From NCBI RefSeq assembly GCF_005981925.1, contig NZ_VBVX01000014.1:1-44371 (forward strand): a DNA stretch of 44,371 nucleotides, given 5' to 3'. A program made the translations under genes and the position numbers. Positions 190 through 15,155 of this stretch are shown in pieces. The stretch is from Streptomyces albidochromogenes. Lineage in GTDB: Bacteria > Actinomycetota > Actinomycetes > Streptomycetales > Streptomycetaceae. The notes under the pieces were generated by a model. The model searched no databases. It saw only the letters and a program-made list of their open reading frames with translations, and was not told the origin of the DNA. Each line of letters begins with the position of its first letter. The first letter of the stretch is position 1.

Positions 190-264
190 TGGTGCGCGAT
201 ACTGGGATTGAACCAGTGACCTCTTCCGTGTCAGGGAAGCGCTCTCCCGCTGAGCTAATCGCGC
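190..264 (-). tRNA. tRNA-Val(GAC), CCA encoded
   Basis: On the minus strand the cloverleaf has acceptor GCGCGAT/ATCGCGC, D arm with AGCTCAGCGGGAGAGC, anticodon stem CTTCC/GGAAG with loop CTGACAC (anticodon GAC), and T arm ACTGG-TTCAATC-CCAGT. The 3' CCA is encoded at 190-192. It is the last gene of a five-tRNA minus-strand operon and near-identical in body to the next two Val genes. Confidence 0.95.
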
Positions 265-303
265 GGGATTCATTCAGTTGATCTTGCGGTCGTGCTGACT
301 GCG

Positions 304-375
304 TGCGCGATACTGGGATTGAACCAGTGACCTCTTCCGTGTCAGGGAAGCGCTCTCCCGCTGAGCTAATCGCGC
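304..375 (-). tRNA. tRNA-Val(GAC), CCA not encoded
   Basis: Same sequence as the tRNA at 190-264, with anticodon GAC and acceptor GCGCGAT, but the discriminator A at 304 is followed by CGC rather than CCA, so the tail must be added by tRNA nucleotidyltransferase. A 39-nt spacer separates it from the downstream copy. Confidence 0.95.
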
Positions 376-404
376 GGGACGGACACCCGTTTCCGGGGTT
401 CCAG

Positions 405-476
405 TGGACGATACTGGGATTGAACCAGTGACCTCTTCCGTGTCAGGGAAGCGCTCTCCCGCTGAGCTAATCGTCC
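405..476 (-). tRNA. tRNA-Val(GAC), variant acceptor stem
   Basis: Third tandem Val(GAC) gene. The D, anticodon and T arms match the two downstream copies but the acceptor stem is GGACGAT/ATCGTCC. CCA is not encoded. Its 5' end lies only one nucleotide from the encoded CCA of the upstream tRNA-Cys. Confidence 0.95.
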
Positions 477-477
477 T

Positions 478-551
478 TGGAGGTGGAGACGGGATTTGAA
501 CCCGTGTAGACGGCTTTGCAGGCCGTTGCCTCGCCTCTCGGCCACTCCACC
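478..551 (-). tRNA. tRNA-Cys(GCA), CCA encoded
   Basis: Minus-strand cloverleaf with acceptor GGTGGAG/CTCCACC, anticodon stem ACGGC/GCCGT, loop CTGCAAA (anticodon GCA) and discriminator U73 as expected for cysteine. CCA is encoded at 478-480. It is second in the operon, between tRNA-Gly and the three tRNA-Val genes. Confidence 0.95.
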
Positions 552-591
552 AGGAGTGAATGACAGGGGGTCGGGAAGATCCCCCACACCG

Positions 592-664
592 AGCGGACGA
601 CGAGATTCGAACTCGCGACCCTCACCTTGGCAAGGTGATGCTCTACCAACTGAGCCACGTCCGC
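592..664 (-). tRNA. tRNA-Gly(GCC)
   Basis: Minus-strand cloverleaf with acceptor GCGGACG/CGTCCGC, anticodon stem TCACC/GGTGA, loop TTGCCAA (anticodon GCC), T loop TTCGAAT and discriminator U73. CCA is not encoded. It is the first gene of the Gly-Cys-Val-Val-Val operon. Confidence 0.95.
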
Positions 665-6973: not shown

Positions 6974-6986
6974 GTGCGGAGCGCCG

Positions 6987-7058
6987 GGGCGATTAGCTCA
7001 GTGGGAGAGCGCTTCGTTCACACCGAAGAGGTCACTGGTTCGAACCCAGTATCGCCCA
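6987..7058 (+). tRNA. tRNA-Val(CAC), copy 1
   Basis: Acceptor GGGCGAT/ATCGCCC, D arm AGCTCAGTGGGAGAGC, anticodon stem CTTCG/CGAAG with loop TTCACAC (anticodon CAC), T arm ACTGG-TTCGAAC-CCAGT, discriminator A. CCA is not encoded. It is a single-gene unit followed by a strong terminator hairpin. Confidence 0.95.
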
Positions 7059-7064
7059 CCCGGA

Positions 7065-10197: not shown

Positions 10198-10210
10198 TCA
10201 GTCCGTTCCC

Positions 10211-10282
10211 GGGCGATTAGCTCAGTGGGAGAGCGCTTCGTTCACACCGAAGAGGTCACTGGTTCGAAACCAGTATCGCCCA
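10211..10282 (+). tRNA. tRNA-Val(CAC), copy 2
   Basis: Identical to the gene at 6987-7058 except that the T loop is TTCGAAA instead of TTCGAAC. Anticodon CAC, acceptor GGGCGAT/ATCGCCC, discriminator A; CCA is not encoded. It is followed at once by a rho-independent terminator. Confidence 0.95.
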
Positions 10283-10292
10283 CCCGGGAAAG

Positions 10293-10363: not shown

Positions 10364-11092
10364 TCAGGCGGCGGCCGCCGGGATCTCGGGGCGCAGGGGC
10401 CACGCCGGATTCACCGCCTCCTCCGACCCGTTGCGGGCGAACCACGCCTGCAGACCGCGTGCCTGCGCCGCGTGCCACACCGCCTGGAGGGAGTGCAGCT
10501 CGGCGGGCGAGAGCCGTTCGAGACGCGCGGCGAAACGGCGGCCCAGCGCGCGTACGACCTCCAGCGAGGCGGTCGCGTCGGCGGCCGCGTCGTGCGCCCC
10601 GTCCAGCTCCACCTCGTACTGCGCGCACAGGTCGGTGAGCGTACGGCGGCCCTTGCGGTAGCGGTCGAGATGCTTGTCCAGGACGCGCGGGTCCAGTACG
10701 CACAGCGGGCGGCTGTCCAGATAGCGCGTCAGCGAGGACGCCCGGTGTCGGCGCAGCTCACGGTCCAGCAGCGTCAGATCGAACGGCGCGTTCATCACGA
10801 CCAGCGGCCGGCGGGCGATGCTCTGCTCGGTCAGGCACCTGGCTATCTCCTCCATGACGGGGGCGGGCCAGCGGCCGTTGCGCTGGAGATGATCGTCCGT
10901 CAGGCCGTGGATCGCGGCCGCTTCGGCCGGCACCGGGATGCCCGGATTCACCAGCCAGCGCGTCACCCGCACCCGCCCGCCCGGCGCGTCCTGCACGACC
11001 AGCGCGGCGGAGACGATGCGGTCCTCCTCGACATCCACCCCCGTCGTCTCGGTATCGAACGCGGCGAGGGGTCCTTCGTACCAGCACGTCAT
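10364..11092 (-). CDS. DEDDh 3'-5' exonuclease (DnaQ/epsilon-like)
   Basis: 242 aa. The exonuclease fold shows all catalytic residues: Asp13 and Glu15 in FDTETTG, Asp105 in NAPFDLTLLD, and His167-x4-Asp172 in AHDAAADA, so it is the DEDDh subtype. These enzymes remove nucleotides from DNA or RNA 3' ends using two metal ions. There is no BRCT, helicase or polymerase domain, so it is a stand-alone exonuclease. The C-terminal 60 residues form an extra helical tail with no known motif. AGGAG precedes the ATG at 11092. It diverges from the DUF4365 gene. Confidence 0.9.
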   Translation of the reverse strand: MTCWYEGPLAAFDTETTGVDVEEDRIVSAALVVQDAPGGRVRVTRWLVNPGIPVPAEAAAIHGLTDDHLQRNGRWPAPVMEEIARCLTEQSIARRPLVVMNAPFDLTLLDRELRRHRASSLTRYLDSRPLCVLDPRVLDKHLDRYRKGRRTLTDLCAQYEVELDGAHDAAADATASLEVVRALGRRFAARLERLSPAELHSLQAVWHAAQARGLQAWFARNGSEEAVNPAWPLRPEIPAAAA

Positions 11093-11278
11093 GTCGAACT
11101 CCTCTTGCTCCCATGGCAGATGGCGTGCGTCCCCTGCCCGAACCGGTGATACCCGGGACGTTTGCCCGGTACGCCGTTTGCGGGGCAGGCGGAGCGGAGA
11201 CAACACAGGTGACGGCACGGGCGGTTGACGGACCGTCGCGGGGAAAGATCGGCAACAGCCCGGAAGGCACCGTCAGCC

Positions 11279-11845
11279 ATGGCGCTCACGCAGCCCGAAC
11301 CGGGCGGGCTGCTGCCCGAGCGGATCGCACCGCTGCGCGGCGGACTCGCCACCACCGCCTGCATGGAGACTCTTCAGGTGGGCTATCTGCACGCGGTCGC
11401 GGCGGCCGCGGGATGCTCTCTCTCACAGCCGTTCCCGGACAACGGCATCGACTGGCACGTGAGCCACAGCGCTCCCGAGCACACGGTCGACGACGAAGTC
11501 ACCATCAAGGTGCAGCTCAAGTGCACCTACCAGATCCCGCCGCACCCGGCCGGCGGCGCCTTCTCCTTCACGCTCGACAACGCGCACCTGGAGAAGCTCG
11601 CCCGCAGCCCGGTGTCGGTGCACAAGATCCTGGTCGTGATGATCGTGCCGCGGACCCAGGAGGACTGGCTGCGCGCCGGCCACGACCGGCTCGACCTGCG
11701 GCACTGCTGCTACTGGACCAACCTGGCCGGACACCCGGTGACGGGCAGGCGCAGGACCACCGTGCGGATCCCGACCTCGCGGATGTTCGACGACCGCGCG
11801 CTCTGCGAGATCATGACCCGGGTCGGGGCGGGAGGGAGACCCTGA
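11279..11845 (+). CDS. DUF4365 protein, PD-(D/E)XK nuclease-like
   Basis: 188 aa. The core looks like the restriction-endonuclease fold: a helix with METLQVGYLHAVAAAAGC (about 29-46), GIDWHV with Asp58, then strand TIKVQLKCT with Gln79-x-Lys81, matching the D...(D/E/Q)XK catalytic pattern of DUF4365. The C-terminal part has WTNLAG and a conserved basic strand (RRRTTVRIP). No helicase or specificity domain is present, so the substrate is unknown. The ATG at 11279 is preceded by GGAAGG. Its stop overlaps the next start (ATGA), so the two are translationally coupled. DUF4365 membership rests on motif recall, not a search. Confidence 0.75.
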   Translation: MALTQPEPGGLLPERIAPLRGGLATTACMETLQVGYLHAVAAAAGCSLSQPFPDNGIDWHVSHSAPEHTVDDEVTIKVQLKCTYQIPPHPAGGAFSFTLDNAHLEKLARSPVSVHKILVVMIVPRTQEDWLRAGHDRLDLRHCCYWTNLAGHPVTGRRRTTVRIPTSRMFDDRALCEIMTRVGAGGRP

Positions 11846-13089
11846 TGCGGCACCGGCCGAACGACGAGCCCGTACGACCACACCCGAGCACGGAGCCCGA
11901 CGGCGGCTTCGCCGCGGGGCCCGGCGTCTGGGACGCCTGCGTGGGGCCCGACCCCGCGCAGGTCGACCCCGCCGTGCTCGGCGTGCTCCTCGCCCGGCAC
12001 GGCTGGCGGCGGCGCGGCGGCGCGGCGGGGCGCTACGCGCGCTGGACCCCGCCGGGTCCCTCCGGCGGCGCCACCAGCCTGCTCGTACCGGAAAGCAGGG
12101 CGTTCCCCGACAGCGACGACCTGCTCGGCGAGGCGCTGACCGCGCTCGCCCGCTGCGCCGCGCCCTCCGCCCGCGAGGTGCTGGTCTCGCTCGCCGTGCC
12201 GAGCGACGAGATCAGGTGGTGGCGCGACGTACCGGAGAGCCCTTCGGGAGCCGCGTCCTGGACGGCGCAGGAGCAACTGCGCTCGGCGGCACGCCAGTTG
12301 CTGCTCGCGGGGGCGCTCGCCGCGCGGGGGCGCGCCGGGTACTACGGCGCGCGGCACCGGCGGCAGGCGCAGGCGTCGCTGGAGGGCGTCCTGGTGGGAC
12401 CGGCGCCCGGCGGGCGGGCGCTCACCGCGTTCGTACCGGTTCAGGTGGGGCGCGGGGCGGTCGTACGGCTGCACCACGCGCTGCACGCCGCCCGCGAGGC
12501 CGTCGACTACCAGCGGGCGACGGGCGGCATGGACGCCTTCGACTCCGCTGTCGAGGCGGGGGTGAGCCGCGAGCTGACGGACGCGGTGATCGCGCTGGTG
12601 CACGGCTCGGAGGGCGCGCGGATCGGGCTGGAGTGGTCGCCGGGCGCCGGAGTGCCCGAGGGGTGCGCGGCGCGTCCCGAGGCGGTCGAGTTCTCACCCG
12701 GCGACCTGCCGGCGCTGCGCGCGGCGGCCGCGCGCTACACGCTCGACGAGCCGTCCGTCGCGGTACGGATCACCGGCGCCGTCGTGCGGATGCGGCGCTC
12801 GGGGCCGCGCGGGTCCGGCACGGTGCGGCTGCGTGTCCTGGCGGGCGCGGAGGTGCCGCACGTACGGATGGTGCTCGACGAGGAGGCGTACCGGATAGCG
12901 GGCCACGCCCACCTGGTCGGGCTGCCGATCAGGGTCCACGGGCAGCTGGAGAGCCGGGGCGGTTTCCGGCGGCTCACCGGCGCGCGGAGTGTGGTGCCCG
13001 TGCAGGTGGACGACGCGGAGCGGGACCGGCTGATGAAGTCGCTCCACGAGAACCTGGACTTTTTCGAGGAGGCGTGCGGCGGGGATTAA
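11845..13089 (+). CDS. Conserved protein of unknown function, partner of DUF4365 gene
   Basis: 414 aa with no membrane segments or signal peptide. The first ~60 residues look disordered. The middle (about 70-260) is mixed helix/strand with long Ala/Arg-rich helices. The C-terminal ~110 residues (from VAVRITGAVVRMRR through HLVGLPIRVHGQLESRGGFRRLTGARSVVP) are strand-rich and could be a small beta-barrel, perhaps OB-like. No catalytic signature is seen. The start codon overlaps the DUF4365 stop, arguing for one complex or one pathway. Stop is TAA. A function in nucleic-acid processing is only inferred from its partner and the divergent exonuclease. Confidence 0.75.
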   Translation: MRHRPNDEPVRPHPSTEPDGGFAAGPGVWDACVGPDPAQVDPAVLGVLLARHGWRRRGGAAGRYARWTPPGPSGGATSLLVPESRAFPDSDDLLGEALTALARCAAPSAREVLVSLAVPSDEIRWWRDVPESPSGAASWTAQEQLRSAARQLLLAGALAARGRAGYYGARHRRQAQASLEGVLVGPAPGGRALTAFVPVQVGRGAVVRLHHALHAAREAVDYQRATGGMDAFDSAVEAGVSRELTDAVIALVHGSEGARIGLEWSPGAGVPEGCAARPEAVEFSPGDLPALRAAAARYTLDEPSVAVRITGAVVRMRRSGPRGSGTVRLRVLAGAEVPHVRMVLDEEAYRIAGHAHLVGLPIRVHGQLESRGGFRRLTGARSVVPVQVDDAERDRLMKSLHENLDFFEEACGGD

Positions 13090-13178: not shown

Positions 13179-15155
13179 GTGTCAGACGTCCGTGTGTTCA
13201 TCCAACGCGATTCCGAGCGGGAAGAGCGCGTGGTGACGACGGGCACCACGGCGGCGGAACTCTTCCCCGGCGAGCGCACCGTCGTGGCCGCGCGGGTGGC
13301 CGGCGAGCTGAAGGACCTGGCGTACGTCGTCGCGGACGGCGAGGAGGTCGAGCCGGTCGAGATCTCGTCCGAGGACGGCCTGAACATCCTGCGCCACTCG
13401 ACCGCGCACGTGATGGCGCAGGCCGTGCAGGAGCTCTTCCCCGAGGCGAAGCTCGGCATCGGCCCGCCGGTCAAGGACGGCTTCTACTACGACTTCGACG
13501 TCGAGAAGCCGTTCACCCCCGAGGATCTCAAGGCCGTCGAGAAGAAGATGCAGGAGATCCAGAAGCGCGGGCAGCGCTTCTCGCGCCGCGTCGTCACCGA
13601 CGAGGCCGCGCGCGAGGAGCTGGCGGACGAGCCGTACAAGCTGGAGCTCATCGGCATCAAGGGCTCCGCGTCCAGCGACGACGGCGCGGACGTCGAGGTG
13701 GGCGGCGGCGAGCTGACCATCTACGACAACCTCGACGCCAAGACCGGCGACCTGTGCTGGAAGGACCTCTGCCGGGGTCCGCACCTGCCCACCACCCGCA
13801 ACATCCCCGCGTTCAAGCTGATGCGCAACGCCGCCGCCTACTGGCGCGGCAGCGAGAAGAACCCGATGCTCCAGCGCATCTACGGCACCGCGTGGCCGTC
13901 GAAGGACGAGCTGAAGGCGCACCTGGAGTTCCTCGCCGAGGCCGAGAAGCGCGACCACCGCAAGCTCGGCAGCGAGCTGGACCTCTTCTCGATCCCCGAG
14001 CAGATCGGCTCCGGCCTCGCCGTCTTCCACCCCAAGGGCGGCATCATCCGCCGGGTCATGGAGGACTACTCGCGCCGCCGGCACGAGGAGGAGGGGTACG
14101 AGTTCGTCTACACCCCGCACGCCACCAAGGGGAAGCTCTTCGAGACCTCGGGTCACCTGGACTGGTACGCCGACGGCATGTACCCGCCCATGCAGCTCGA
14201 CGAGGGCACGGACTACTACCTCAAGCCCATGAACTGCCCGATGCACAACCTGATCTTCGACGCGCGGGGCCGGTCCTACCGTGAACTGCCGCTGCGCCTC
14301 TTCGAGTTCGGGACCGTGTACCGGTACGAGAAGTCCGGCGTCGTGCACGGCCTGACCCGTGCCCGCGGCTTCACCCAGGACGACGCGCACATCTACTGCA
14401 CCAAGGAGCAGATGGCGGAGGAGCTCGACCGTACGCTCACCTTCGTCCTCGGCCTGCTGCGCGACTACGGCCTGACCGACTTCTACCTGGAGCTGTCCAC
14501 CAAGGACCCGGAGAAGTTCGTCGGTTCGGACGAGATCTGGGAAGAGGCCACCGAGACGCTGCGCCAGGTCGCCGAGAAGCAGGGGCTTCCGCTGGTCCCG
14601 GACCCGGGCGGCGCGGCCTTCTACGGCCCGAAGATCTCCGTCCAGTGCAAGGACGCCATCGGCCGCACCTGGCAGATGTCGACCGTGCAGCTCGACTTCA
14701 ACCTGCCGGAGCGCTTCAACCTGGAGTACACCGGCCCCGACGGCAGCAAGCAGCGCCCGGTGATGATCCACCGCGCCCTGTTCGGCTCGATCGAGCGCTT
14801 CTTCGCGGTGCTCCTGGAGCACTACGCGGGCGCGTTCCCGGCGTGGCTCGCCCCCGTGCAGGCGGTCGGCATCCCGATCGGCGACGCGCACATCCCGTAC
14901 CTCCAGGAGTTCGCCGCCGACGCGAAGAAGAAGGGGCTGCGGGTCGAGGTCGACGCCTCTTCGGACCGGATGCAGAAGAAGATCAGGAACCAGCAGAAGC
15001 AGAAGGTCCCCTTCATGATCATCGTCGGTGACGAGGACATGAACGCGGGCACCGTCTCCTTCCGCTACCGGGACGGGTCGCAGGAGAACGGCATCCCCCG
15101 CGAGGAGGCGCTGGCGAAGATCGCCGACGTCGTGGAGCGCCGCGTCCAGGTGTGA
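13179..15155 (+). CDS. thrS: Threonyl-tRNA synthetase
   Basis: 658 aa class II synthetase that charges tRNA-Thr. In order: an N-terminal TGS domain (1-65), the editing domain with [11 protein letters not shown] near 71-81, the catalytic core and a C-terminal anticodon-binding domain (from about 550). The zinc ligands Cys353 (MNCPMH), His404 (DDAHIYC) and His531 (MIHRALFGS) are present, as are motif 2 ([12 protein letters not shown]) and motif 3 (FGSIERF). The length is normal. The GTG start follows AGGAGA. The next gene on this strand is the HIT-family gene, an order also found in mycobacteria. Confidence 0.98.

What the first reader, a model, noticed from the sequence alone, without database searches (positions are those of the whole stretch)
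10364..13089. Exonuclease diverging from a coupled DUF4365 / unknown protein pair: possible undescribed nucleic-acid module
A DEDDh exonuclease with all catalytic residues faces a translationally coupled pair: a DUF4365 protein with a D58...Q79-x-K81 PD-(D/E)XK-like core, and a 414-aa protein with no known motif but a strand-rich C-terminal part. Two nuclease folds and a tightly coupled unknown suggest a joint role in DNA or RNA processing, repair or defence. The location beside thrS in core chromosome argues for a conserved rather than a mobile function.
Basis: partly seen in the sequence, partly recalled or inferred. Interest (0 to 1): 0.6.

Follow-up and report, generated by a model that had tools for sequence, protein, structure and literature searches.

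The report
Resident two-gene phage-defence candidate (PDC-M02)
Next to a core tRNA-synthetase gene sits a two-gene pair, a nuclease of the kind used by the SPARDA immune system plus a partner with a DNA-binding-type fold; it is already catalogued as a candidate anti-phage system of unknown mechanism, and it is unusual in having stayed at one chromosomal spot across much of a bacterial family.

Summary
The DUF4365 gene (A, 11279-11845) and the 414-aa gene (B, 11845-13089) are real, overlap by 1 bp and form a genuine pair. Both match PADLOC's unnamed candidate PDC-M02 (307 and 612 bits). A B-family frame follows A in 80 of 82 distant loci from several phyla, mostly with 4- or 11-bp overlaps; one locus is a natural A-B fusion; plasmids and prophages carry the pair. 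The A half of that fusion models as the SPARDA nuclease DREN (VIA Z 13.1). B ends in an SSB/PriB-like OB fold. The exonuclease is separate: it stays near thrS where the pair is absent (14 of 15) and was not found near 82 distant pairs. In the window's family the pair lies beside thrS in the 10 other genera fetched, under purifying selection, with repeated decay of either gene. Best reading: a nuclease-effector defence module in which B senses nucleic acid and switches on A, like SPARDA without Argonaute. Pairing, fold and location are shown; sensing, activation and defence are inferred.

The parts
11279..11845 (+). Gene A: stand-alone DUF4365 / DREN-type PD-(D/E)XK nuclease, 188 aa; putative active site D58, Q79, K81 (D54 nearly invariant)
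   Evidence: PF14280 77.7 bits; PADLOC PDC-M02A PDLC04276 306.7 bits; D58, Q79 and K81 each kept in 142 of 146 rows, D54 in 138; the A half of a natural A-B fusion matches SPARDA DREN, Z 13.1
11845..13089 (+). Gene B: 414-aa partner; residues 42-117 alpha-beta-beta-beta-alpha N-domain, 139-300 mainly helical middle, 305-385 OB fold
   Evidence: PADLOC PDC-M02B PDLC04317 611.9 bits; AlphaFold2 mean pLDDT 82.3; OB part matches SSB/PriB/RPA
11843..11847 (+). TGATG overlap of the A stop and B start (translational coupling, inferred)
   Evidence: 4-bp overlap in 57 of 75, 11-bp in 13 of 75, 1-bp in 2 of 75 and a gap in 3 of 75 distant loci
10364..11092 (-). E: DnaQ-like DEDDh exonuclease (PRK07942), 242 aa; flanking gene, not part of the module
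   Evidence: NCBIfam 297 bits; retained in 14 of 15 loci that lack the pair
13179..15155 (+). thrS, threonyl-tRNA synthetase; downstream neighbour of the pair
   Evidence: TIGR00418 hit 13392-15125; B under 1.5 kb upstream, same strand, in 120 of 123 comparable genomes

Best explanation
A and B are a two-gene, DREN-effector immune-type module (PADLOC candidate PDC-M02), resident beside thrS in the window's family. A is the effector, a PD-(D/E)XK nuclease of the SPARDA DREN type using D58, Q79 and K81, and is expected to be silent alone. B holds A and senses: its SSB/PriB-like OB fold binds single-stranded nucleic acid exposed by phage or plasmid replication, its N-domain and middle domain transmit this, and B then assembles or releases A so that it degrades DNA (possibly RNA), blocking the invader or the infected cell. 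Shown: the pair, its conservation, A's fold (through a relative) and conserved catalytic-type residues, B's predicted OB fold, carriage on plasmids and prophages, and long vertical residence here. Inferred: nuclease activity of A, physical A-B contact, ssDNA as the trigger, and the defence outcome.
For: PADLOC PDC-M02A/B at 307 and 612 bits. A B-family frame after A in 80 of 82 distant loci; coupled overlaps; natural fusion L064, 343 aa. A half of the fusion best matches SPARDA chains (Foldseek E 1.5e-6; VIA Z 13.1, 140 residues, 3.5 A). D58, Q79, K81 each in 142 of 146 rows; Nba DREN D41/Q60/K62 are catalytic and DREN alone has undetectable activity (PMC12205087, passages). B C-terminal OB fold: 4dam Z 9.3, 3klw Z 8.8. 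Pairs in Leptospira phage LE1 and a Mycobacterium prophage, on plasmids; of 118 neighbour ORFs 10 match phage integrase and 4 type I specificity subunits. Loss of either gene is tolerated: intact A with broken B in 5 loci, intact B with broken or absent A in 5, as expected if both are needed to act and neither is a lone toxin.
Against: No experiment. In this family the pair is not in an evident defence island: neighbours are tRNA-Val, thrS, an ion channel and EF-G-like genes, and presence is steadier than I expect of a defence system (B match in 169 of 199 genus genomes). Defence-gene neighbours of distant pairs are few and I ran no control set. OB folds are common, the best OB match is the metal-binding SilF (Z 10.3), and a shared fold shows no function. 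The fusion model has pTM 0.48, so no A-B interface can be read from it. Not every A keeps the site: L035 has E for D58, and L149 has R and T for Q79 and K81 beside a B match. Intact A beside broken B could include assembly errors.
Confidence: 0.5

Rival explanations
1. Domesticated housekeeping module: in the window's family the pair has been recruited to a chromosomal nucleic-acid task (for example trimming recombination, replication or conjugation intermediates) and no longer serves defence.
For: Beside thrS in all 12 loci picked from 10 other genera of the family; B match in 169 of 199 genus genomes; dN/dS for A 0.06-0.16, like E and thrS, and for B 0.14-0.24, somewhat higher; distances of A and B track E (Spearman 0.57 and 0.69, permutation maximum for B-E 0.39).
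Against: Repeated loss, truncation and frameshift at the same site, usually without loss of neighbours, shows it is dispensable; relatives elsewhere are mobile.
Confidence: 0.2
2. Direct restriction-like system: B is the DNA-targeting subunit that brings nuclease A to invading DNA and cuts it without harming the host.
For: OB fold and nuclease in one coupled pair; some neighbouring type I specificity and ResIII genes (4 and 3 of 118 ORFs).
Against: No modification enzyme or recognised specificity domain in the pair; the closest effector, SPARDA DREN, acts as a collateral nuclease (PMC12205087, passages).
Confidence: 0.15
3. Toxin-antitoxin: A is a constitutively toxic nuclease and B its antitoxin.
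For: Small nuclease plus coupled partner, on plasmids and prophages.
Against: A stays intact with D54, D58, Q79 and K81 where B is frameshifted or truncated in 5 loci (L157, L158, L166, L167, L168), which a lone toxin should not allow; B is large and multi-domain.
Confidence: 0.1
4. Three-gene module: exonuclease E works with A and B.
For: E, A and B lie together in 25 of 26 genus loci (L002-L026, window included; L027 has B alone) and in 11 of 12 loci of other genera.
Against: E is kept near thrS without the pair in 14 of 15 loci; L149 has A and B matches without E; no E homologue among ORFs of 82 distant loci or of the 17 first distant loci.
Confidence: 0.03

Closest known systems
PADLOC candidate system PDC-M02 (PDC-M02A + PDC-M02B)
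   Same: Both proteins match with high scores; all 50 B proteins scanned, window B included, match PDC-M02B.
   Different: The catalogue entry gives no mechanism or description; the residency beside thrS and the domain make-up were worked out here.
SPARDA (short Argonaute + DREN-APAZ)
   Same: Effector fold and D...QxK active-site pattern of DREN (PMC12205087, passages).
   Different: A has no APAZ part (188 aa against 388-423 aa for the matched SPARDA chains); window B has no Pfam family and its relatives only scattered weak hits, none to Piwi.
SSB / PriB / RPA OB-fold proteins
   Same: Residues about 301-395 of B.
   Different: B has further parts, and its profile finds no sequence-level relative in the PDB.
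Archaeal Hjc resolvases and I-Ssp6803I
   Same: Match the A half of the fusion, Z 9.6 and 9.4.
   Different: Score below SPARDA; stand-alone enzymes without a coupled partner (recalled).

Membership tests
PADLOC PDC-M02 | A-type protein matching PDC-M02A | tested here: met
   PDLC04276, E 1.2e-92, 306.7 bits, residues 1-188
PADLOC PDC-M02 | B-type protein matching PDC-M02B | tested here: met
   PDLC04317, E 1.1e-184, 611.9 bits, residues 7-412
PADLOC PDC-M02 | The two genes adjacent | tested here: met
   1-bp overlap in the window; a B-family frame next to A in 80 of 82 distant loci
PADLOC PDC-M02 | Anti-phage activity | not testable with these tools
   PADLOC lists it as a candidate; [quoted passage not shown]
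SPARDA | DREN (DUF4365) nuclease domain with D, Q, K catalytic residues | tested here: met
   PF14280; VIA Z 13.1 to 9qcc_Y for the A half of the L064 fusion; D58, Q79, K81 in the window and in 142 of 146 rows each. The residue correspondence rests on motif and fold, not on a residue alignment
SPARDA | APAZ region fused to DREN | tested here: not met
   A is 188 aa and PF14280 spans residues 34-181, leaving no room for APAZ
SPARDA | Short Argonaute (MID-PIWI) partner gene | tested here: not met
   B has 0 Pfam families at E<=5; none of 50 B proteins matches a Piwi family at E<=0.1
OB-fold single-strand binding proteins | OB fold | tested here: met
   B model residues about 301-395, e.g. 4dam_F Z 9.3, 86 aligned, 3.0 A
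OB-fold single-strand binding proteins | Single-strand nucleic-acid binding | not testable with these tools
   needs a binding assay
Toxin-antitoxin | Toxin gene cannot persist without the partner | tested here: inconclusive
   5 loci with intact A beside broken B speak against it, but assembly errors are possible

The most novel reading that the evidence does not exclude
A guide-free relative of SPARDA: an OB-fold protein (B) replaces Argonaute as a direct sensor of single-stranded nucleic acid and switches on a DREN nuclease, and one bacterial family has kept this as a vertically inherited innate immune module beside thrS since its common ancestor.
Probability: 0.3. Interest if true: 0.75.

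Novelty: new member of a known kind. Interest (0 to 1): 0.5.

Why it matters
If the reading holds, the DREN effector is shared between Argonaute-guided and unguided immune systems, and a candidate defence system carried by most members of a genus could be tested directly in genetically tractable laboratory strains. It would also be a case of a mobile-type defence module turned into a long-term chromosomal resident, with natural single-gene losses that separate the roles of the two parts.

Tried and rejected
Three-gene module with the exonuclease: rejected. PADLOC does give E a DEDDh hit (97.2 bits) and a PDC-S48 hit (78.9 bits), but NCBIfam places it in PRK07942 at 297 bits, so I read these as generic DnaQ-domain hits. 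Plain toxin-antitoxin: disfavoured. SPARDA membership: two defining features not met. Recent acquisition in the window: not supported; A and B are GC-rich like their neighbours (0.698 and 0.771; thrS 0.677, E 0.727, window 0.718) and track E in divergence.

Led nowhere: PDB sequence searches with the B profile (0 hits) and the A profiles (what look like chance hits), so the D58/Q79/K81 to D41/Q60/K62 match rests on motif and fold. tblastn of P0001 against phages found nothing and against plasmids one weak hit; a Gluconobacter B found no phage; viral-contig scans with P0001 and P0003 found no relative. Promoter and terminator scan found nothing. In the fold searches the N-domain and middle domain of B were barely tested, so no fold is claimed for them; a likeness of the N-domain to dsRBD/HicA folds is recalled only. 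One of 50 B proteins weakly hits GMT-wHTH (E 0.0035). The neighbour survey used 118 of 266 candidate ORFs, showed only the top 25 of 397 PADLOC and 141 Pfam families, and had no control set.

Rows dropped: an alignment of 45 chosen A sequences gave D58/Q79/K81 invariant, but it had left out L035, which has E for D58. The full count over all 146 A rows (window copies L001 and L002 left out; a few records are present twice) is 142 of 146 for each residue; misses are L035 (D58), L149 (Q79, K81), and L120, L088 and L111 (all three; short or cut frames).

Papers: PMC12205087, PMC10810196, PMC6299218, PMC12988326 and PMC11811056 were seen as passages only; all others as search listings only. That the pair is not in print rests ('PDC-M02', 0 papers), 17, 63, 64, 96 and 97 in an open-licence library without preprints; the work behind the PDC names was not read. 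S. coelicolor locus tags guessed from memory gave one listing that I did not read.
Full report
The window holds the three genes as described: a DnaQ-like DEDDh exonuclease E (10364-11092, minus), a DUF4365 protein A (11279-11845, plus, 188 aa) and a 414-aa protein B (11845-13089, plus), then thrS at 13179. A and B overlap by one base. The genome has one DUF4365 match and one B match. 'Genus' and 'family' below mean the window's own, as the genome tool groups them.

What the pair is. B has no Pfam family, but PADLOC names it PDC-M02B (611.9 bits over residues 7-412) and A PDC-M02A (306.7 bits over residues 1-188). This is a catalogued phage-defence candidate without a described mechanism. 'PDC-M02' occurs in 0 papers of the library. 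PMC12988326 (passages) says that PDCs come from a guilt-by-embedding approach and that validation is pending for most.

Co-occurrence. Of 17 first distant loci (actinomycetes and plasmids; L027 is in the genus), 16 held an A and in all 16 B followed it; L027 had B only, and the A of L044 is short. A genome scan with an A alignment matched 112 stretches, of which 109 encode relatives and 80 were kept; a viral scan gave 2 more. In these 82 loci a B-family frame follows A in 80. L079 keeps only the first 17 residues of B; L124 has a truncated A and no B found. Among the 80, B looks cut or split in L068, L091 and L106 and matches weakly in L082 and L104; in L088 and L111 A was seen only as the tblastn match. 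Of 75 loci with a computed junction, 57 overlap by 4 bp, 13 by 11 bp, 2 by 1 bp and 3 have a gap. L064 (Scytonema hyalinum) is an A-B fusion of 343 aa. Many cyanobacterial B proteins are short, about 180 aa, with N-domain and C-domain but no middle; L117 and L122 are cyanobacterial with a full-length B.

A is a DREN nuclease by fold. In the AlphaFold2 model of the L064 fusion (mean pLDDT 81.0, pTM 0.48) the A half matches SPARDA chains best: Foldseek E 1.5e-6, VIA Z 13.1 over 140 residues at 3.5 A for 9qcc_Y; Hjc follows at Z 9.6. Over all 146 A rows at hand D58, Q79 and K81 are each kept in 142 and D54 in 138 (rows partly redundant). L035 has E for D58. L149, from another genus of the family, with a B match and no E nearby, has R for Q79, T for K81 and A for D54. 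The other misses (L120, L088, L111) have short or cut A frames. In NbaSPARDA D41, Q60 and K62 are the catalytic residues, alanine changes abolish or impair activity, and DREN alone has undetectable activity until it tetramerises (PMC12205087, passages). A DUF4365-APAZ/Argonaute complex also degrades DNA nonspecifically (PMC10810196, passages). Window A was not folded alone; the fold is carried over from its relative.

B ends in an OB fold. The model of window B with 49 relatives has mean pLDDT 82.3 and pTM 0.66. Residues about 301-395 match OB folds: SilF Z 10.3, S. coelicolor small SSB (4dam) Z 9.3, PriB Z 8.8. The metal-binding SilF stands first, so the OB fold alone does not prove nucleic-acid binding. 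A full-length structural match is a 381-aa protein of Leptospira phage LE1 (E 1.8e-17); LE1 has a 381-aa gene beside an A gene, which my B profile also finds (86 bits), so I take them to be the same protein.

Mobile relatives. A-like matches occur on 27 plasmid records, of which I opened 8: Streptomyces, Phaeobacter, Paenarthrobacter, Gluconobacter, Tistrella, Caballeronia, Nostoc and Tolypothrix; all 8 have a B after A. Pairs also lie in Leptospira phage LE1 and in Mycobacterium prophage prophi102-2, where they are the first two genes (B profile 281 bits). Of 118 neighbouring ORFs scanned (of 266 candidates), 10 match phage integrase, 3 resolvase, 4 type I specificity subunits and 3 ResIII; no control set was run.

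Residency in the window's family. Some B match was found in 169 of 199 genus genomes, a few of them divergent or fragmentary, and some DUF4365 in 160 of 199. Of 123 genomes with both B and thrS among the listed rows, B is less than 1.5 kb upstream of thrS on the same strand in 120 and 1.5-1.8 kb upstream in 3; 27 genomes with a listed B had no listed thrS and 26 the reverse, and these were not counted. In the family B was found in 92 of 150 genomes and 11 of 17 genera. Twelve loci picked from 10 other genera all show A-B-thrS (A frameshifted in L153), with E upstream in 11 of 12. With the PADLOC profile over a class sample 38 of 296 genomes match, 8 of 114 genera; 22 of the 38 are in the window's genus. 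Between the window and four relatives dN/dS is 0.06-0.16 for A and 0.14-0.24 for B, against 0.06-0.15 for E and 0.09-0.20 for thrS. Over 25 loci, window included, distances of B and A correlate with E (Spearman 0.69 and 0.57; 200 permutations of B-E, maximum 0.39). With thrS, present only as a fragment, they are weaker (0.45 and 0.35) and the latter would not stand out from those permutations.

Empty and decaying sites. I took 15 of the 30 genus genomes without a B match. thrS is present in 15, E in 14 (one in pieces; none in L133), and the E-thrS gap is about 220-970 bp instead of 2.1 kb; L134 keeps a piece of A and L141 pieces of A and B. So the pair is a dispensable insert between two genes that usually stay, and the exonuclease is not part of it. 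E itself is sometimes missing: L133, L149, L156, L170. Single-gene losses go both ways. Intact A with D54/D58/Q79/K81 beside a frameshifted or truncated B: L157, L158, L166, L167, L168. Intact B beside a lost, truncated or frameshifted A: L162, L164, L165, L169, L153. Most of these loci were chosen because they looked irregular and are not a rate; some are draft assemblies.

Mechanism. Most likely A is the effector and B the sensor-activator, as Argonaute-APAZ is for DREN in SPARDA, but without a guide. The tolerance of either loss fits a module that needs both parts to act and speaks against a simple toxin-antitoxin pair. Rivals are a domesticated housekeeping role (0.2), direct restriction (0.15) and toxin-antitoxin (0.1).

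Verdict. It is a member of an already catalogued candidate, so the novelty is moderate; the fold assignment, the catalytic match to SPARDA and the deep residency make it well testable.

Noticed in passing
window 6984-7063 and 10208-10287: Two tRNA-Val(CAC) genes in an 80-nt direct repeat (98% identical) flank a 3.2-kb segment with an 854-aa ORF and a polyketide-cyclase-like gene; the second copy lies about 80 bp beyond the 3' end of the exonuclease.
   Followed up: no
window 190-664: A cluster of five tRNA genes: Val(GAC) three times, Cys, Gly.
   Followed up: no
L064 9911-10942: Natural A-B fusion protein in Scytonema hyalinum.
   Followed up: partly
L049-L051, L053-L063, L065-L067, L069, L070, L072 and others: Cyanobacterial B proteins of about 180 aa that lack the middle domain; on two cyanobacterial plasmids a tyrosine recombinase follows the pair.
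   Followed up: partly
L164, L165, L169: Three genus genomes keep intact B but only about 60 N-terminal residues of A, with D54 replaced by G.
   Followed up: partly
L149 (A at 5139-4576): Near full-length A in another genus of the family with R, T and A in place of Q79, K81 and D54, beside a B match and without E: a probable natural dead nuclease.
   Followed up: partly
L156, L170: Two genus genomes have an open frame of about 380 aa that matches window B only from residue 111-121 on, with no A and no E found: possibly B used alone.
   Followed up: no
G404:C7, G597:C380, G584:C17, G527:C1:4765681: Second, divergent B copies (about 30-35% identical) on other contigs or far from the main copy in some family genomes, which may be mobile versions beside the resident one.
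   Followed up: no
L037 1671-6236: On a linear Streptomyces plasmid the pair directly follows a helicase-associated-domain gene near the plasmid end.
   Followed up: no
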